From positions 1 through 35,778 of the forward strand of contig JASHPK010000020.1 in NCBI GenBank assembly GCA_030038095.1: a DNA stretch of 35,778 bases, given 5' to 3'. Both the position numbers and the translations under genes were made by a program. How positions within the stretch are numbered: the first letter of the stretch is position 1; each line of letters starts with the position of its first letter. Source of the DNA: Thermoplasmata archaeon. Its GTDB lineage: Archaea > Thermoplasmatota > Thermoplasmata > Lutacidiplasmatales > UBA184. The notes under the pieces were generated by a model, which had not been told where the DNA came from, did no database searches, and saw only the letters and a list, made by a program, of their open reading frames with translations. Shown here in pieces: positions 8,299 to 16,903 of the stretch.

Positions 8299-9189
8299 GT
8301 GGCGAGTCGCCCCACGGTCCGTGTGGAAGTTCACCACGGGGACTCCCGGCGTCTCGTCGGGATCCCTAGCGGATCGGTCCATCTGGTGGTCACCTCGCCC
8401 CCGTACCCCAAGATCCCGCAATGGGACCGGCTGTTCCATTCGCTAGGGGCGGACGACTACGCCTCGATGCTGAAGGTGCTCGAAGGCGCCTGGCAGGAGT
8501 GCTACCGGGTCCTCGTCCCCGGGGGAATCCTCGCGATCAACATCGGGGATGCCCTCCGGACCGAGGACGGACGCTTTCGCCTTTGGCCGAATCACGCGGA
8601 GACGCTGCGCTCGGCGAGCCGAGTCGGCTTCCGTCCCCTTCCCTATCTCCTGTGGAAGAAGCCGACCAACCGACCGAACGCCTTCCTCGGCTCGGGGTTC
8701 CTTCCCCCGAACGCGTACGTGACGCTCGACTGCGAGTACATCCTGCTCTTCCGCAAGGGAGACCTTCGGCGCTTCCCTCCGAACGATCCCGAGCGCGCCG
8801 CGAGCCGGTTCTCGCGGGCGGAACGCGACCTCTGGTTCAGCCAGGTCTGGTCGGACGTCCGCGGCGCGCCGCAGCGGAACGGGAACGGACGGAGCGCCGC
8901 GTTCCCGAGCGCGATCCCCGAGCGGCTCATCCGGATGTTCTCCGTCCGCGGGGACACCGTGCTCGATCCGTTCGCCGGGACGGGGACCACGTTGTGGGCG
9001 GCCGCGCGCTGGGGCCGGAATGCGATCGGCGTCGAGTGGGACGTCGAAGTGTTCACCGCGCTCCGCGACGCGGCTCGTCGGCGAGGGTTCCTCACTCCGC
9101 GTGGTCCGGGGAAGAGTTCGCCGGGCGCGTCCGATGAGCGATCTCCTCCTCGACGGCGTGGTGGAGATAGTGGAGGCCCGAGTCGCTGA
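8299..9189 (+). CDS. Orphan DNA methyltransferase, probably N4-cytosine type
   Basis: The 296-residue enzyme transfers a methyl group from S-adenosylmethionine to a DNA base. The catalytic motif TSPPY lies at 32-36 and the SAM-binding motif DPFAGTGTT near 222-230, an order (IV before I) typical of the beta class. TSPPY is most common in N4-cytosine enzymes, though N6-adenine activity cannot be excluded. The start is GTG at 8299. No restriction enzyme or specificity subunit is nearby, so it is a solitary methylase. The last 35 residues are Arg/Gly/Ser-rich, lie beyond the fold and are read antisense to the end of the neighbouring gene, with which it overlaps by 98 bases. Confidence 0.9.
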   Translation: MASRPTVRVEVHHGDSRRLVGIPSGSVHLVVTSPPYPKIPQWDRLFHSLGADDYASMLKVLEGAWQECYRVLVPGGILAINIGDALRTEDGRFRLWPNHAETLRSASRVGFRPLPYLLWKKPTNRPNAFLGSGFLPPNAYVTLDCEYILLFRKGDLRRFPPNDPERAASRFSRAERDLWFSQVWSDVRGAPQRNGNGRSAAFPSAIPERLIRMFSVRGDTVLDPFAGTGTTLWAAARWGRNAIGVEWDVEVFTALRDAARRRGFLTPRGPGKSSPGASDERSPPRRRGGDSGGPSR

Positions 9190-9634: not shown

Positions 9635-11332
9635 TCATAAACTTCCGCTTGGAGCGGCAACCGCAGCCTCGTCTCGGCCGACCGCGGGCCCATCGAGGTG
9701 GTTCGCGAGGAGCTCGTACTCCGGGGTCGAGGCGATGATCGCCAGCGGGAGGTGGTACGCCCCGATCCGCCAGAGCGACTCCGCGTAACCGACCTCGCGC
9801 GGGAGCCGGGCCCGAGGGAGCCACGACGTCTCGGCGGGGGTGAGCCCAAAGAACTCCTGGGTCGCGTGGGAGACTTCGGGGAGCCGGAGGAAGACGCTCG
9901 CGTGGAGGTTCCTCAGGAGGGAGCGTCCGCTCGCGCGGGACAGGAAGTCGTCGGGGTTCTGGCTGATCACCACGACCCCGGCCTCGAAGTGCCGGACGTG
10001 CCGGACGACCCGGTCGAGGAATTCGGAGGTGATGTCGAGGGAAGCGAGGAGGTGGGCCTCGTCGACGACGAGCAGTTTCGGGCCCTTCCGTTCGCCGAGC
10101 CGGCCGTACGCCCAGTCGAGGAGATAGGTGAGATGGAACGGCAGCTGTTCGATCGGCACGCCGCGGAGATCGGCCGACACGATCTGCGCGCCGGCGCGGA
10201 CCGTCGTCGGCCCGTTGAGCGATCGCAACGAGCCCGAACGCAGCACCTCGAGCAGGGTCGGCAGCCGCTCTGACGGACCGCGGACCGCCGCAAGCTCGGC
10301 CGCGAGGTCGTCGAACGTCGGGACCGTGACGCCGCTCGCGAAGAGCCGGGTCACGGCGGCGTCGAGCGAGGCGACCTCCTCGTCGCGGAGGCTCGGGAAG
10401 AGCGCCCGAAGCATGGCCGTGGAGCGGGCGGCCTTCTCGCGCCGGTCCCCGCCCGTCGTCACGGGATCGAGCGGGTTCAACCGGCCGGCGGCGCCGTCGG
10501 CGGGGGTGATCACGTCTCCCCCGAGGGCGCGAACGAGCCGGGAGAGCTCGCCGAGCGGATCGAGCACGACCACGGAGGTCTCGGGCCGCATCCACAGGGT
10601 CCGGAGCAGGAAGAGCCCGGTCGCGAAGGTCTTCCCCGAACCCGTCGCCCCGAAGATCCCCCAAGAGTAGCTCGCGTGGCGCCAGCGGTTCAGGAAGACG
10701 GGGCTCGCATCGGCGAGGGCGACGCCGACCAGGATGCCCCCCGGCTCGACGACCGTCTCGTCCGTGAACGGATAAAGCGCGGCCAGCGCGTCGGTCGGCA
10801 GCGAGTGCCAGAAGCCCGTGGGTCGGGGCTCCGCCCCGGTCAGGTACGGCGGAGCCAGCGCTCGCCCCACCTCGTACCGGGGGATTCTCGCCCGGAACCC
10901 GAGCCCCTCGAGTCGTCGCGCGAGGCGAGTTCGCGCCCGCTCGGCGGTGAGCCGCGACGGGCCATGGGTGGTGAAGCGCAGACCGACCTTCCACAGTTCC
11001 TGGGTGCGCCGCGCGACCGACCGCGCGAGCTCCTCGGCCGTGGCGCGTTCCGCCTCGAGTTCGGCGGTCGCGCTCCCTTCGGTCCCCGAGCTCAGTTCCG
11101 CCGCCGCGACGGCGCGTGCCCCGTGAAGCATCTCGAGGGCCTCTCGGCCGGGGATGGGGTGCGCTTCGAGGAGGAGTTCGAGGGGCTCCGTCGTCGGGAG
11201 CAGCCGCCCGAGAAGGCCGAACGGAGCCTCGGGCGGGAACTGGAGGACCAGGAGGGGCGCGCGGTAGTGGGTGCCGATCCGAAGATGACCGGGCCCCTCC
11301 CATTCCGCGCGGGGCGGGGTCACACGCGTCAA
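9635..11332 (-). CDS. VirB4/CedB-like ATPase of a DNA-transfer system
   Basis: The 565-residue ATPase belongs to the HerA/VirB4/FtsK group. It has an N-terminal domain of about 200 residues with a charged helical hairpin, Walker A GIFGATGSGKTF (GATGSGKT at 228-235), LDPLGEL and GRLNPLDP after it, Walker B LLVVDEAHLL (420-429) and VVISQNPDDFL as the sensor region. NPLDP and DEAHLL are typical of VirB4/TraC/CedB motors, which drive pilus assembly or DNA movement at the membrane. The frame stays open to 11755, but upstream of about 11332 it reads as a shadow of the next gene. I start at TTG 11332 because GGAGGT is six bases upstream and TTGA overlaps the preceding stop; GTG at 11323 is an alternative. 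Confidence 0.85.
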   Translation of the reverse strand: MTRVTPPRAEWEGPGHLRIGTHYRAPLLVLQFPPEAPFGLLGRLLPTTEPLELLLEAHPIPGREALEMLHGARAVAAAELSSGTEGSATAELEAERATAEELARSVARRTQELWKVGLRFTTHGPSRLTAERARTRLARRLEGLGFRARIPRYEVGRALAPPYLTGAEPRPTGFWHSLPTDALAALYPFTDETVVEPGGILVGVALADASPVFLNRWRHASYSWGIFGATGSGKTFATGLFLLRTLWMRPETSVVVLDPLGELSRLVRALGGDVITPADGAAGRLNPLDPVTTGGDRREKAARSTAMLRALFPSLRDEEVASLDAAVTRLFASGVTVPTFDDLAAELAAVRGPSERLPTLLEVLRSGSLRSLNGPTTVRAGAQIVSADLRGVPIEQLPFHLTYLLDWAYGRLGERKGPKLLVVDEAHLLASLDITSEFLDRVVRHVRHFEAGVVVISQNPDDFLSRASGRSLLRNLHASVFLRLPEVSHATQEFFGLTPAETSWLPRARLPREVGYAESLWRIGAYHLPLAIIASTPEYELLANHLDGPAVGRDEAAVAAPSGSL

Positions 11333-11700
11333 CGGCGCACCTCCGTGGAGGCCGCACCGCCGGACCGCCGGCGCTCGACGATCCACAGCGGGACCAGCCC
11401 GAGCCCGAGAGCGAGCCCCCGCCCGGGCTCGAGCGAGACCGGGGGAGCCACGTACAGCACGATGGCGAGGACCAGCAACGCGCCAGCGCCGACCACCCGG
11501 GCCCGACGGAGCTCGCTCCGAGGGACCCCTCGGTGCCGTTGTCGGGCGATCCAGCCCGCGACCGCGAGCGCGGCGAGCGACCCGGTAAGGGCCACGAGGA
11601 ACGGCAGAGCGAGAGAGAGCGCTCCGCTGATGACGGCCGAACCGACCGCGAGGCCGAACGCTTCGAAGTCGAGCTCCGTGGGTCCGCTCCGGGTCGTCAT
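11329..11700 (-). CDS. Small four-helix membrane protein of the transfer cluster
   Basis: The 123-residue protein has four hydrophobic segments at about 14-33, 35-50, 69-86 and 94-109, separated by a basic loop (ARQRHRGVPRSELRRAR) and ending in a basic tail. The ATG at 11700 overlaps the stop of the preceding gene by four bases, and its own stop overlaps the VirB4-like start, so it is translationally coupled on both sides and very likely a subunit of the same membrane complex. No family is recognised by eye. A structural counterpart could be VirB3 or one of the small Ced membrane proteins, but only size and position support that. Confidence 0.75.
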   Translation of the reverse strand: MTTRSGPTELDFEAFGLAVGSAVISGALSLALPFLVALTGSLAALAVAGWIARQRHRGVPRSELRRARVVGAGALLVLAIVLYVAPPVSLEPGRGLALGLGLVPLWIVERRRSGGAASTEVRR

Positions 11701-12479
11701 GGTCGCTCCCCGACGGGGCCCCAGCCGTACCTTCGCCCCGCGTCTCGGAGGGCACGGCCGGTGAGCCGGGAGGGGTGGAGCTCGAGTGCCCTCAGCTGCT
11801 GCTCGAGCTGCTGCATCCGACGGTCGAGCTCGCCCATCGCCTCCGGTCGGGATTCCGTAGTCGCGAGGGCGAGGTAGACGCGGCGACGACCGCGCCGTCG
11901 GCAGAGGAGCTGAGCCAGCTCGGCATAACCGCGCTGCGCGTCCCGGCCGAGGGTCGCCGCGGAATCCGGCGCGGGCCGGACGTCCCGGTATCGAATCGGC
12001 TCGAGACCTACGAGGAAGACGACGCTCGTTTGCATGGTACGCAGCAGGGCGCGGAACAGATCGAAACGTCGGGCGAGCTCGGCCGGTGGAAGGTACGCGA
12101 ACGGCACCCCGGGCACCCGCAGCACCGCGACGAACCGCGACGGAGAGATCTGCAACCAGATCCCTTGGACCTTGGGACCCCGGCGGGGTCCGCTCATGGG
12201 ACCCTCCCGGAGGGTTCCGCGCAGGCGCCAGGCCAGATAGTCGAGGGCCCGAACGTCGATCGCGCGGCCGTCCGGCCGCCAAGCGGAGACCACGAACCCG
12301 ATCCCGACGAGCGGTAGCCACAGGTACGGGGCGGCGAATGGAGCGAGGACCGCTCCGGTCGCCGCGTAGCAGACGAACTTGAGCGCATCGCGGGCGGAAG
12401 GGAAGGGACCGAGCCGCAGACGCCGGTCGAATCGCTCCGGCAGTACGACCACCGGCGGCGCGTCGGACCCCTCGTCCAT
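11697..12479 (-). CDS. PrgI-like membrane protein of the transfer cluster
   Basis: This 260-residue protein begins with a basic segment and two closely spaced hydrophobic segments (about 32-66), then WRPDGRAIDVRALDYLAWRLR. That arrangement, two N-terminal helices followed by a short cytoplasmic stretch, is the plan of PrgI-family proteins, which stand directly before the VirB4-type ATPase in Gram-positive and archaeal type IV secretion loci. The rest is a soluble alpha/beta part (ISPSRFVAVLRVPGVPFAYL) resembling the N-terminal domain of VirB4-type proteins, ending in a Gln/Leu/Arg-rich coiled-coil-like helix (about 210-235). ATG at 12479 lies five bases after the preceding stop. The family assignment is by topology and neighbours. 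Confidence 0.7.
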   Translation of the reverse strand: MDEGSDAPPVVVLPERFDRRLRLGPFPSARDALKFVCYAATGAVLAPFAAPYLWLPLVGIGFVVSAWRPDGRAIDVRALDYLAWRLRGTLREGPMSGPRRGPKVQGIWLQISPSRFVAVLRVPGVPFAYLPPAELARRFDLFRALLRTMQTSVVFLVGLEPIRYRDVRPAPDSAATLGRDAQRGYAELAQLLCRRRGRRRVYLALATTESRPEAMGELDRRMQQLEQQLRALELHPSRLTGRALRDAGRRYGWGPVGERP

Positions 12480-12483
12480 CGCG

Positions 12484-13614
12484 TCACGGCCCCTTTCCGC
12501 GAATCGGTGGCATCGCCGAGGATCTCGGAGCTCCGCCCTTCGGCTCGGAGAAGTGTCGCACGAGGTGGAGCGCTCCGTGGCCCACCAGCTCCGCCGCCGC
12601 GAGGGGGGCCGCGGCCGGGGCGGCCGCGCTCCCGGCGACTCGCGTGCCCCCCGCGAGCGCGGCCCCTGCCGGACCCGACGAGCGGAGGCTGGACGCCGCC
12701 GGTGCGACGAAGGCCGTGGCGCCCGCCGGGGCCGTGGCGAGGCCTCGTTGCGTGCCCGCCGACAGAGTGGCGGCAGCCGCCGGGAAGCCGAACGCGGACA
12801 AGTGGGTGCCCGCGAGGGACAGCAAGAACGGCGAAGCGAGCGCGACGCCGAGGAAGGCGACGAGGAGCACCGGGGTTGGGCTCCCCACCGCGAGCTCCAG
12901 AGGCACGACGAGGACGCACGGGAGGAACGCGAGCTCGAGGAAGAGGAGCCACGCGCGTCGGGCGATCGTGGAGAAGGGCCTCACCGGCCACAGCAGCGTG
13001 AATATCGGGAGCAGCACGAGCAGGACCGCGAGCAGGGCGTCCCGGACACCGACCGCGAGGACGAGGCCCAGGACCAGGGCGAACTCCACGAGCGAGAGCA
13101 CGAAGGCCAGAGCGCCGTTGTCCCAGGAGTACGAGATCTGGCCGTACCCGGCGAGGTTGACCCAGTGCTGCCAGGTACCTCCGTCCCACCCCGCGAGGAC
13201 GGGGTACAACGATCCCGACGCCGTGAGGATGGCGCTCGCGATCGGAACGGTGAAGTTGGCGGTGACGACCGCGATCACGAGGCGCACGAGCAGGCCATCG
13301 AAGAGCGTCGCCCACCGGGCGACGAGCGCCCTCGAGAGGTAGACCACCGCCACGCCGATCGCGATGAGGCCGATCGCTGGATCGACCACGTTCGCGAGGG
13401 TGAAGATCGAGAAGCGCACGGCGGTGCCGAGGAAGCCGGCCCCCGCGTTTGGGCCGCTCAGCGGAGGGTAGAGCGCGGTCGTTTGAAGCTCGGGGACCAG
13501 CAGGTTGTCGTACGTCGGGCCGACGATCGCGGTGACGATGGCCGTGAGCGCGGCGAAGAGGGCGAAGAGCAGCGACTGGATCGAGGCGACCGGGCTCCCG
13601 GCCAGATCGAACAC
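12484..13614 (-). CDS. VirB6/CedA-like polytopic membrane protein
   Basis: The 376-residue product has about seven hydrophobic helices, beginning with SIQSLLFALFAALTAIVTAI (about 10-30), through FALVLGLVLAVGVRDALLAV, to PVLLVAFLGVALASPFLLSL (about 250-275). The last 90 residues are Ala/Pro/Gly-rich and probably cytoplasmic. Seven helices, size and position between a pilin-like gene and the PrgI/VirB4 genes match the inner-membrane channel subunit of DNA-transfer systems (VirB6/TrbL; CedA in Sulfolobales). The start is GTG at 13614, eight bases after the preceding stop; upstream in the same frame the sequence is a shadow. Sequence identity to known CedA could not be tested. Confidence 0.75.
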   Translation of the reverse strand: MFDLAGSPVASIQSLLFALFAALTAIVTAIVGPTYDNLLVPELQTTALYPPLSGPNAGAGFLGTAVRFSIFTLANVVDPAIGLIAIGVAVVYLSRALVARWATLFDGLLVRLVIAVVTANFTVPIASAILTASGSLYPVLAGWDGGTWQHWVNLAGYGQISYSWDNGALAFVLSLVEFALVLGLVLAVGVRDALLAVLLVLLPIFTLLWPVRPFSTIARRAWLLFLELAFLPCVLVVPLELAVGSPTPVLLVAFLGVALASPFLLSLAGTHLSAFGFPAAAATLSAGTQRGLATAPAGATAFVAPAASSLRSSGPAGAALAGGTRVAGSAAAPAAAPLAAAELVGHGALHLVRHFSEPKGGAPRSSAMPPIRGKGP

Positions 13615-13622
13615 GGTCGGGG

Positions 13623-14030
13623 CTAGGTCCCGGTGAGGACCCAGTGGGCGAGGCCCCAGAAGAGCCCGGTGACGGCGGCGGTGAAGAGGAGGGTCCCGAT
13701 GAGGGCGTCCCGGGCCCGGTCCTTTGCCTGGACCTTTTTCGTGATGTCGTTCGAGAACCAGCTCAGCGCCACCCGGGCCCAGACGAGGGCGAGGATCCCC
13801 CCGCCGGCCAGCCCCACCAGCTCCACGAGCCGATCGATCGATCCGGTGAAGTTGGCCACGGCCGAGGAGTTTGTGGCTGGACCCTGGGCCCATCGGGGCC
13901 CGATCCGGGTCGGCAGGGGCTCCCAGGCCGCGCCCAGGGACGGAGCGACGAGGAGCGCGAGCGCCAGGACGGGTGCGATCCTCCGCGTTCCGAGTATGGG
14001 CCGGTCTAGGTGGAAGGGCTGGGGGACCAT
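13623..14030 (-). CDS. VirB2-like conjugation-type pilin candidate
   Basis: The 135-residue product has a basic N-terminus and signal-like helix (about 17-35, ending PSLGAA), a linker with NSS and NFT, and two long hydrophobic helices (about 68-92 and 108-131) joined by a charged loop, NDITKKVQAKDRARD. Signal segment plus two helices with a short basic loop is the plan of VirB2/TrbC conjugative pilins and of the archaeal CedA1/TedC pilins, which polymerise with lipid. Position directly before the VirB6-like gene supports this. The ATG at 14030 lies within the end of the surface-protein gene, overlapping by 25 bases. No class III signal peptide of type IV pilins is present. Confidence 0.7.
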   Translation of the reverse strand: MVPQPFHLDRPILGTRRIAPVLALALLVAPSLGAAWEPLPTRIGPRWAQGPATNSSAVANFTGSIDRLVELVGLAGGGILALVWARVALSWFSNDITKKVQAKDRARDALIGTLLFTAAVTGLFWGLAHWVLTGT

Positions 14031-16171
14031 GCGAGCACCTCCTCCCCGTCGGAGGTCGTGTCGCTGCGGATTCTTCCCTCGCCGACGAGCCGGTCGATCG
14101 TCGAGCGCGCGAGATCTAGAGGGATTCCGGCCTCTTCGGCGAGGAGTTCCACGGTGGGCCGGTCCGCGCCATCGGCCGGTTCGAGAATGCGTCGAAGGAC
14201 CGCTTCCGGGTCCGGGGGCGTGGGGGGAACCGATCGGCCACGCCGGTGCCGCCGCCACCAGATTCCGCCGGCCACGATCAGGGCGATCGCCACGGATCCC
14301 GCTGCGACCTCTCCGATCGCGGAGGGGGTCGAGGGGGTTGCACGGATCCCCAGATCCACGGTCGCGTTGATTTCGAACGAGTAACCGTACCGGTCCACCA
14401 CGACCAGACTGACATTGACGGGGCCACTCGCGTCCTCGGGTACCGTCCATCGGAAGTCCCCGTCCGAGGCTTCGGAGGTCGTCCACGGCCCTCCCGTGGA
14501 AGCGTTGGCGAAGAACGTGAACGGGGGGACCCCGCCCTCGAGCTCCGCGGTCACCTCGAGGTCTCCCGGGGCGCCGGCGCTGGCTCCGAGGACGGCGGTG
14601 AACGGAGCGACCGCGAGGGAAGAAATGCTCGCATTCCCGGTGGCTCCGGACGGATCAAAGACCTCGAGGGTCACCGTGGCCGACGCCTCCGGATCGAACT
14701 CTCCCGACCATCCGAACGGATCCCCGGCGCCGGCGATTCCGGCGAAGGGGCTGTTCGACGAGGTCGGGCCGGAGGCGCCGACGCACCAGTAGAAGGGGGG
14801 CGCCCCGCTCGTGACCGAGAAGTTTCCCGTGACCGAGCTCGAGGCGGCGGTGAGCGCCCGGCCGAACCCCGCGTCGAGGATGAGCGTCGGCTCGACAGTG
14901 AGGGTCGTCGCCCCCGTCACCCCGACCCCGAGGGCATCCGTCACGTTCACGACGACAGGGAGCGAGCCCGGCTCGCTGTCCTCGAGCGGAACGAGCACGG
15001 ACCCATCCGCGGCCGCGAGGGAATCCACGGGCGTCGGGGAACCGAGCTCTTGGGCCGCGACGTGGAACGGCGCCACTCCACCGGCGATCTCTACGACGAT
15101 CTCGGAGGACTCGCCGACCTCGCCCGAAAGCACCGGAGGTTCGACGTCGATCGAGAGGGGCGCGGAGACCGGGACGACGAGCTCGCTCGAAGCGATCGGG
15201 AGATTCGGTGAGCCGAGGCCGGCGATGACCGTGGCGGGGCCGAGGCGGGCAAAGGAGCAGCTGAAGTTCTCGGTGGAGGGTCCAAGATCGATCCAGTCCG
15301 GCGGAAGTCCATCACAGAGGGAGAAGGGCGGGTATCCCTCGGGGGCCCTCGCGAAGCGGACGGAGTACAGTACCGGGGTCTCGACCTCGGCCCCGTCGAC
15401 CGCGGTCTCGATGCCGGACGCCGCCTGGTCGCTCACCTCGATCGCTTGGGGAGCGAGGGCGGTGGTGGTGGAGCCGAGCACGTCCTCGATCGAAATTTGG
15501 GGGAGGAACTGTCCTCCCGGAAAGGTGTGGGGCACCGAGAATGGGCCGGACCGGTCCAGTGCGACGGACGAGCGGCTCCCGTCCGCCCAGGCAATCTCGG
15601 CGGAGTAGGGAGCGACGCCCCCCACCACGGAGCCGGTGAGGTTCACCGTCGTCCCCGGGCGGACCGGTCCGGGTCCGACCGAGAGGTTCGTCAGGGCCAG
15701 TGCCGCCACGACCGTCACGTTCGCGGTCGCCGTGGCCAAGGCGGGAGCGGAGGATGAGCCGCAATCGAACGTCCCGGCCGAGCGGACCGAGACCGACTCC
15801 GTCCCGGTCTCGTTCGCGACCGCCGTGAAATTCACGATCGCCCCCGAGCTCGACGACAGCGAGCCCAAGGGCGGGCCTCCGACCGCCGTCCAGAGGAACC
15901 AGCTCGGCGTGACCGAACATCCCGGGGTCCCGGGGATCCATGCCGCGGTGAGGGCGGTCGAGTTCCCGACTCCGAGCCACCAGCGGGCCGGATCGACGGA
16001 GAGCGACGGTCGGTCGACTCCGAGGGCGGACCCGGCGCCGGTGGGGAGCCGTGGGTCCCGCGACCCCAAGGCCCCGCCGGCAGGCATCCCGAGAAGAACG
16101 GCCGCAACGCCGAGAGCGACCCCGACCCGGAGCGTGCCGAGCTGCCTCCGAAGCGACCCGGAACCGGCCAT
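14006..16171 (-). CDS. Large surface protein with Ig-like repeats, one membrane helix and intracellular winged helix
   Basis: The 721-residue protein has a signal peptide (about 10-36), then about 570 residues of beta-rich extracellular sequence. A recurring GGVAPY/F motif (184-189, 364-369, GGVPPF at 547-552) marks repeats of the PKD/Ig-like type found in archaeal adhesins, and there are many NxS/T sites. A single helix follows at about 618-639, a basic stop RRHRRGR, and a cytoplasmic domain of about 60 residues (EAVLRRILE, VELLAEEAGIPLDLARSTI, RLVGEGRI) that reads as a winged helix-turn-helix. It leads the transfer operon. It may be the cell-contact receptor, and may signal contact to DNA. 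Confidence 0.82.
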   Translation of the reverse strand: MAGSGSLRRQLGTLRVGVALGVAAVLLGMPAGGALGSRDPRLPTGAGSALGVDRPSLSVDPARWWLGVGNSTALTAAWIPGTPGCSVTPSWFLWTAVGGPPLGSLSSSSGAIVNFTAVANETGTESVSVRSAGTFDCGSSSAPALATATANVTVVAALALTNLSVGPGPVRPGTTVNLTGSVVGGVAPYSAEIAWADGSRSSVALDRSGPFSVPHTFPGGQFLPQISIEDVLGSTTTALAPQAIEVSDQAASGIETAVDGAEVETPVLYSVRFARAPEGYPPFSLCDGLPPDWIDLGPSTENFSCSFARLGPATVIAGLGSPNLPIASSELVVPVSAPLSIDVEPPVLSGEVGESSEIVVEIAGGVAPFHVAAQELGSPTPVDSLAAADGSVLVPLEDSEPGSLPVVVNVTDALGVGVTGATTLTVEPTLILDAGFGRALTAASSSVTGNFSVTSGAPPFYWCVGASGPTSSNSPFAGIAGAGDPFGWSGEFDPEASATVTLEVFDPSGATGNASISSLAVAPFTAVLGASAGAPGDLEVTAELEGGVPPFTFFANASTGGPWTTSEASDGDFRWTVPEDASGPVNVSLVVVDRYGYSFEINATVDLGIRATPSTPSAIGEVAAGSVAIALIVAGGIWWRRHRRGRSVPPTPPDPEAVLRRILEPADGADRPTVELLAEEAGIPLDLARSTIDRLVGEGRIRSDTTSDGEEVLAWSPSPST

Positions 16172-16193: not shown

Positions 16194-16211
16194 ACGATAG
16201 GCCGGTATTAG
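16194..16211 (-). promoter_or_regulatory. Candidate promoter of the transfer operon
   Basis: On the minus strand CTAATACC (16204-16211) and CCTATCG (about 16195-16201) lie 24-40 bases before the surface-protein ATG at 16171, in an otherwise GC-rich 75-base gap after flpA. Either could act as the TATA element for the seven-gene operon. The assignment is by position only. Confidence 0.35.
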
Positions 16212-16246
16212 CGGCCGCATTCGCCGGCGAACGATGGGAGCTGCGG

Positions 16247-16903
16247 CTAGCGGTGCACGAGGAGGGCGACGTGTTCGCGCGAGAACGGAGCGAGCGGCAC
16301 CTCGTGGTCGACCGTGCACCCGCCCCGGCCGAGCTCCGCCCGGGCCTCCCGGACGATCGCCGCGGCCGGCCGGCGTTGGGTGATCGAACGGACCTTCAGC
16401 ATCAGGACCCCCCGTCCCGCCGGACGGAGCGTCGCCCTCGCGTTCTCGATGAAGATGGCCGCCTGGTTGCGCTGGGCCACATCCTGGTAGACGAGATCGA
16501 CCTCGCCGACGTCGGCAAGGTATCGCTCGGGCAGCTGCGCATCCGCGAGGAGCGGCAGAAGGTTGGTCCGACGCCGAGCGACCGCGAGCAAGGGGGCGAA
16601 CGCCGTCGGACTCTTCTCGACGACGAAGATCTCCCCCTCGGGCCAGAGGTCCGACAGGTGGCTCACGGTCGTGCCATGAGCTCCGCCGAGGTAGAGGACC
16701 CGGCGAACTTCGCCGAACAGGTCCCTCGGGGCCCCCTTGGCGAGCAGCGACGCGAGCTTCGAGCGCCACGGGTCCCACAAGCGGTACTCGACGGCGCCGA
16801 CCGAGCGCAGGACCTCGCCGTAGACGCGGACCCCCGGGACCCGGTTGACCGTGTAGAAGTCCCGTCCCTCCCGGAAGATCCCGGGCCACGCGGTCGGTTC
16901 CAT
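16247..16903 (-). CDS. flpA: Fibrillarin-like rRNA/tRNA 2'-O-methyltransferase
   Basis: FlpA is the catalytic subunit of archaeal box C/D small ribonucleoproteins, methylating ribose 2'-OH groups at sites chosen by guide RNAs. The 218-residue protein matches fibrillarin throughout: VRVYGEVLRS, YRLWDPWRSKLASLL, the SAM site VLYLGGAHGTTVSHLSDL, FVVEKSP, and DLVYQDVAQRNQ carrying the catalytic Asp. Length is close to other archaeal fibrillarins. Its usual partner gene nop5 is not adjacent, which is uncommon. The start at the ATG at 16903 lies nine bases after the RidA-family gene, so the two may be cotranscribed. Confidence 0.95.
   Translation of the reverse strand: MEPTAWPGIFREGRDFYTVNRVPGVRVYGEVLRSVGAVEYRLWDPWRSKLASLLAKGAPRDLFGEVRRVLYLGGAHGTTVSHLSDLWPEGEIFVVEKSPTAFAPLLAVARRRTNLLPLLADAQLPERYLADVGEVDLVYQDVAQRNQAAIFIENARATLRPAGRGVLMLKVRSITQRRPAAAIVREARAELGRGGCTVDHEVPLAPFSREHVALLVHR

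What the first reader, a model, noticed from the sequence alone, without database searches (positions are those of the whole stretch)
14006..16171. Cell-surface adhesin fused through one membrane helix to an intracellular winged helix
A 570-residue ectodomain with repeated GGVAPY/F Ig-like motifs, a helix at about 618-639 and a C-terminal HTH-like domain are in one chain, and the gene heads the transfer operon. This could be a one-component contact sensor that turns on the DNA-transfer genes when cells touch, an arrangement I do not know from Ced or Ted loci.
Basis: partly seen in the sequence, partly recalled or inferred. Interest (0 to 1): 0.7.

Follow-up and report, generated by a model that had tools for sequence, protein, structure and literature searches.

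The report
Surface adhesin heading archaeal DNA-transfer operon
The first gene of a chromosomal mating-type DNA-transfer operon in uncultured Thermoplasmata archaea makes a cell-surface protein of stacked Ig-like domains joined through the membrane to a small winged-helix domain inside the cell, which by its charge looks more like a docking part for the transfer machine than a gene switch.

Summary
The architecture is real: signal peptide, about six Ig-like beta-sandwiches (residues 56-607), one membrane helix (619-641) and a confidently predicted winged helix (655-715). It is the first gene of an operon for a VirB2-like pilin, a VirB6/CedA-like protein, a VirB3-like protein and a VirB4-like ATPase. 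The tail is conserved in about 30 orthologous loci of the genus, in 14 loci of other genera of the family, and in a distant family of the class. The ectodomain is not conserved: it ranges from about 1,800 residues to none. Three genomes keep only a soluble winged helix in the same slot. Two keep the operon with no winged helix at all.

The contact-sensing transcription-factor reading is only partly supported. The domain is acidic (median net charge -6, against +3 for MarR domains of related genomes). Its wing reads DGEE where MarR proteins have DRR. No conserved palindromic operator was found, and the conserved upstream element survives in a genome without the protein.

I favour a mating-contact adhesin whose winged helix docks on the transfer machinery (0.5) over a membrane transcription regulator (0.25). 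It is a new accessory variant of a domesticated type IV secretion system; no function has been shown.

The parts
16064..16171 (-). Signal peptide and N-terminal region of the adhesin, residues 1-36
   Evidence: Hydrophobic stretch 11-29 after RRQLGTLR; low confidence before residue 50 in the model
14351..16006 (-). Ectodomain, residues 56-607: about six Ig-like beta-sandwiches with GGVxPY/F motifs
   Evidence: AlphaFold2; Foldseek matches are Ig/FN3-type chains such as contactin-2, DSCAM and GhpA
14249..14317 (-). Single membrane helix, residues 619-641, followed by a basic stretch
   Evidence: Hydropathy; helix 627-641 in the model
14027..14209 (-). Cytoplasmic winged helix, residues 655-715 (acidic; wing SDGEE)
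   Evidence: AlphaFold2 pLDDT above 90; Foldseek; conserved in 30 aligned loci; charge test
13623..14030 (-). VirB2/TedC-like pilin gene, start overlaps the adhesin stop by 25 nt
   Evidence: Signal peptide plus two hydrophobic helices; its profile finds the f15 pilins, one of which matches Pfam T4SS_pilin above the cut-off
12484..13605 (-). VirB6/CedA-like polytopic membrane protein (assignment by position and hydrophobicity)
   Evidence: Conserved in the family and in five other families of the class; no Pfam or PDB match
11697..12479 (-). VirB3-like membrane protein (tentative)
   Evidence: Conserved in the locus; no Pfam family
11329..11698 (-). Small conserved membrane protein between the VirB3-like and VirB4-like genes
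   Evidence: C-terminal part of ORF 11329-12321 conserved in relatives
9635..11332 (-). VirB4/CedB-like ATPase (conserved part of the ORF)
   Evidence: Pfam DUF87 1.8e-7; best solved relative is VirB4-like 4ag5, E=1.7e-11
16247..16903 (-). Fibrillarin gene, constant upstream neighbour (marks the slot, not part of the system)
   Evidence: Pfam E=8.7e-56; same neighbour in the relatives
16204..16210 (-). TATA-like TAATACC, conserved as aAATACC in relatives
   Evidence: Alignment of 26 upstream regions
16225..16238 (-). Conserved upstream element CCCATCGTTCGCCG (relatives: CAYCGTTCAYCGTTC)
   Evidence: not palindromic; only exact match in the own genome

Best explanation
The protein is a co-translated accessory of a domesticated, chromosomal type IV secretion system related to Ced/Ted. 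Shown by sequence and model: secretion signal, Ig-like stalk outside, one membrane helix, a 60-residue winged helix inside, strict linkage to the pilin gene. Inferred: the fast-evolving stalk touches the partner cell or the pilus base and sets partner specificity. Inferred: the acidic winged helix is a protein-docking module that ties this receptor to the cytoplasmic face of the transfer machine, most likely the VirB4-like ATPase or the VirB6-like channel, so that it positions or licenses the machine at the contact site. Where the stalk has been lost, the winged helix stays as a small soluble adaptor.
For: The winged helix is the best conserved part of the protein: 54-73% identity in most relatives, against 29-36% for the ectodomain. 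It survives loss of the stalk in G002, G071 and G029, the latter two on separate branches of the tree. Orthologues head the operon in all genera of the family examined and in a second family, f15, so the link to the machine is old. The stop overlaps the pilin start in the loci examined, by 4-25 nt. Charge: median net -6 (n=31) against +3 for 23 MarR-type domains of related genomes, Mann-Whitney p=4e-10; f15 tails -6, whereas an unlinked membrane winged helix of another family is +3. Protein-binding winged helices (cullin WHB) are among the best structural matches. One copy per genome.
Against: No interaction partner is shown. Winged helices such as MarR and Fur match equally well by fold, and net charge does not exclude DNA binding. 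G019 and G265 keep the operon with no winged-helix gene, so it is not essential to the core; in G265 the ATPase gene is split over two frames. Other families of the class have the core without it.
Confidence: 0.5

Rival explanations
1. One-component transmembrane transcription regulator: contact with another cell changes the stalk, and the membrane-tethered winged helix binds the operon promoter and switches on the transfer genes.
For: Transmembrane regulators with a DNA-binding domain are common in archaea, 1,384 in 404 species, and 56% of all are single-pass (PMC10269533); ArnR/ArnR1 control pili in Sulfolobus (PMC6396743). The fold fits. A conserved element lies about 15-20 bp upstream of the TATA-like box.
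Against: Acidic domain and DGEE wing, in contrast with basic MarR domains of the same genomes. The element is not palindromic, persists in G019 without the protein and occurs elsewhere in genomes. Stalk-less forms would have no sensor.
Confidence: 0.25
2. The tail contacts the transported DNA itself, or tethers the chromosome to the mating site, as a membrane-anchored nucleic-acid binder.
For: Winged helices often bind DNA; the gene is tied to DNA-transfer genes.
Against: Strong negative charge, without a basic surface in the recognition helix or wing.
Confidence: 0.1
3. A general surface protein of the envelope whose tail has an unrelated role (for example anchoring to another cytoplasmic protein), linked to the operon only by history.
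For: Other large surface proteins with similar Ig-like repeats occur in these genomes, and one inspected (L029, G013) ends at its membrane helix without the tail.
Against: Strict linkage to the pilin gene in two families and co-translation; the tail is found only in this slot in the family.
Confidence: 0.15

Closest known systems
Ced and Ted DNA-exchange systems (PMC9905601, PMC11868833)
   Same: Chromosomal operon with VirB2-like pilin, VirB6/CedA-like protein and VirB4-like ATPase; pilin with signal peptide as in TedC
   Different: The Nat Commun paper names conserved HerA, ParA/MinD and Rad50 genes but does not mention a winged helix or an adhesin; other lineage (Thermoplasmata)
Transmembrane transcription regulators (PMC10269533)
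   Same: Single-pass membrane protein with a domain of a DNA-binding fold
   Different: Acidic tail with no sign of DNA binding; stalk-less soluble forms exist; tied to a transfer operon
ArnR/ArnR1 of Sulfolobus (PMC6396743)
   Same: Archaeal membrane protein with an HTH domain, linked to surface appendages
   Different: ArnR has an N-terminal HTH, HAMP and sensor domains and two C-terminal membrane helices; here a large outside stalk, one helix and a C-terminal winged helix
MarR family / cullin WHB domains (folds)
   Same: Best Foldseek matches of the tail
   Different: No MarR wing motif or dimerisation helices; no cullin context

Membership tests
Domesticated T4SS of Ced/Ted type | VirB2/TedC-like pilin | tested here: met
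   the profile links the window pilin to an f15 pilin that matches Pfam T4SS_pilin (34.9 bits, cut-off 26.6)
Domesticated T4SS of Ced/Ted type | VirB4/CedB-like ATPase | tested here: met
   4ag5 VirB4-like, E=1.7e-11; DUF87
Domesticated T4SS of Ced/Ted type | VirB6/CedA-like membrane pore | tested here: inconclusive
   Conserved polytopic protein after the pilin; no PDB or Pfam match
Domesticated T4SS of Ced/Ted type | Transfers cellular DNA between cells | not testable with these tools
   Needs an experiment
Transmembrane transcription regulator | Membrane helix plus domain of a DNA-binding fold in one chain | tested here: met
Transmembrane transcription regulator | Domain able to bind DNA | tested here: inconclusive
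   Charge and wing speak against it; no binding test possible
Transmembrane transcription regulator | Recognisable operator at a target promoter | tested here: inconclusive
   No conserved palindrome; upstream element independent of the protein in G019
MarR family | Basic wing with the D-x-R motif | tested here: not met
   DGEE in place of DRR
MarR family | Pfam match above cut-off | tested here: not met
   No family above cut-off for the window protein or its tail
ArnR | N-terminal HTH, HAMP and sensor domains, two C-terminal membrane helices | tested here: not met
   Opposite order, one membrane helix before the C-terminal domain (PMC6396743)

The most novel reading that the evidence does not exclude
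A mating-contact receptor of an archaeal DNA-transfer machine: an exchangeable Ig-like stalk recognises partner cells and, through a winged helix docked on the VirB4-like ATPase, licenses the machine only at a contact, without a transcriptional step.
Probability: 0.2. Interest if true: 0.8.

Novelty: new variant of a known kind. Interest (0 to 1): 0.5.

Why it matters
How archaeal DNA-exchange systems choose partners and are set off by contact is not known. A conserved one-chain link from an outside adhesin to the inside of the machine, with natural stalk-less, stalk-swapped and gene-less variants, makes the question testable. The same layout in family f15 includes a closed 1.49-Mb genome, probably the cultivated Aciduliprofundum boonei (identified only by its length, from memory), so proteins for biochemistry are at hand.

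Tried and rejected
Palindromic operator upstream of 16171: only short GC palindromes, not conserved. A damage-type regulon read from the element CAYCGTTCAYCGTTC: some matches lie upstream of radA-like, RPA-like and TnpB-like genes, but many lie in coding sequence, so no regulon is claimed; the reversed-pattern control is weak because its CpG content differs. Pfam and PDB sequence searches gave no family for the tail. Profile comparison of the genus tail with the f15 tails alone was insignificant; with a third sequence, from G246, added it reached 82% probability, so homology of the f15 tail rests on architecture and position. No Pfam or PDB match for the VirB6-like protein.

Full report
Observation. 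The ORF at 14006-16171 (-) encodes 721 residues. AlphaFold2 with 26 orthologues (mean pLDDT 83, pTM 0.61) gives a disordered N-terminus with a signal-like helix, beta-sandwiches from 56 to 607, a membrane helix and a winged helix at 655-715. The tail modelled alone has mean pLDDT 89 and the order H-(E)-H-H-E-E. Foldseek puts it among winged helices: MarR, cullin WHB, Oskar LOTUS and Fur. No match reaches E 0.001, as expected for 60 residues. The ectodomain resembles generic Ig/FN3 chains.

Surroundings. Downstream on the same strand follow a signal-peptide pilin with two hydrophobic helices (overlapping the adhesin stop by 25 nt), a polytopic VirB6/CedA-like protein, a VirB3-like protein, a small membrane protein and a VirB4-like ATPase whose closest solved relative is 4ag5 (E=1.7e-11). 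The pilin assignment rests on its profile finding f15 pilins, one of which matches Pfam T4SS_pilin above its cut-off. Upstream are fibrillarin and a RidA-like gene. This is the set that defines Ced/Ted systems (PMC9905601), with the VirB6 step assigned by position only.

Distribution. Orthologues occur through the genus, between fibrillarin and the pilin wherever the contig allows it to be seen. All complete ones have the tail, including a diverged one in L037. In other genera of the family the ectodomain grows to about 1,800 residues while the tail stays next to the pilin gene. In family f15 the same layout is present, with a 744-residue and an 1875-residue protein. G051 is a single 1,486,778-base contig, a length that I recall for Aciduliprofundum boonei; this was not confirmed. 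Loci of families f19, f31, f27 and f11 showed no match to the adhesin or tail profiles; two of them were read in full.

Natural variants. G002 and its relative G071 carry only a 98-residue winged helix, and G029 a 113-residue one, with no signal peptide, ectodomain or membrane helix, in the same slot. G002 and G029 sit on separate branches of a tree of the linked genes; G029 groups with fusion carriers (support 0.94), G002 is placed with low support. Two independent losses is the simplest reading. G019 and G265 have the operon but no winged-helix match anywhere in the genome. The tail is therefore more constant than the stalk, and neither is essential for keeping the core.

Is the tail a DNA-binding switch? 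Its median net charge is -6 (range -10 to -1, 31 sequences), against +3 for 23 MarR-type domains found with PF12802 in related genomes; the two sets hardly overlap. The MarR wing motif DRR is replaced by DGEE. Tails of f15 are -6, and those of other genera in the family -6 to -10; a membrane winged helix of family f19 not linked to the operon is +3. Charge is not proof, and a DNA-binding role is not excluded.

Promoter. Alignment of 26 upstream regions shows a TATA-like AAATACC and, about 15-20 bp further up, CAYCGTTCAYCGTTC or a relative of it. It is a tandem of a 7-bp unit, not a palindrome. In G019 the form CACCGTTCAGCGTTC lies in front of the operon although the genome has no winged-helix gene, so the element does not need this protein. 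Matches elsewhere are mixed.

Mechanism. Shown: topology by prediction, conservation, linkage, charge. Inferred: partner or pilus contact by the stalk, and docking of the winged helix on the machine. Transmembrane transcription regulators are common in archaea (PMC10269533) and remain the main rival.

Verdict. A real and conserved accessory gene of a Thermoplasmata Ced/Ted-like system. The contact-sensor part of the reading is possible; the transcription-switch part is weakened. New variant of a known kind, interest 0.5.

Noticed in passing
L097 and L207 (G022), L116 (G033), L122 (G025), L162-L164 (G080), L096 and L103: Copies or near copies of the element CAYCGTTCAYCGTTC lie upstream of a radA-like gene, an RPA-like OB-fold gene, TnpB-like genes and a conserved family beginning IALFRW; it may be a shared promoter element.
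   Followed up: partly
L285:9826-14703 (G051): Five tandem ORFs with VirB2-like pilin C-termini, four of them with different N-terminal extensions, between the adhesin-winged-helix gene and the VirB6-like gene.
   Followed up: no
L283:12523-14618 (G265): The VirB4-like ATPase is split over two overlapping frames in a genome that has also lost the winged-helix gene; decay or an assembly error.
   Followed up: no
L308:2758-6231 (G246): A 1,157-residue surface protein of family f19 with a membrane helix and a winged-helix tail (net +3), not near a transfer operon.
   Followed up: partly
window 8299-9189: A DNA methylase gene on the opposite strand beside the VirB4-like gene, kept in this place in most relatives whose contigs reach it.
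   Followed up: no
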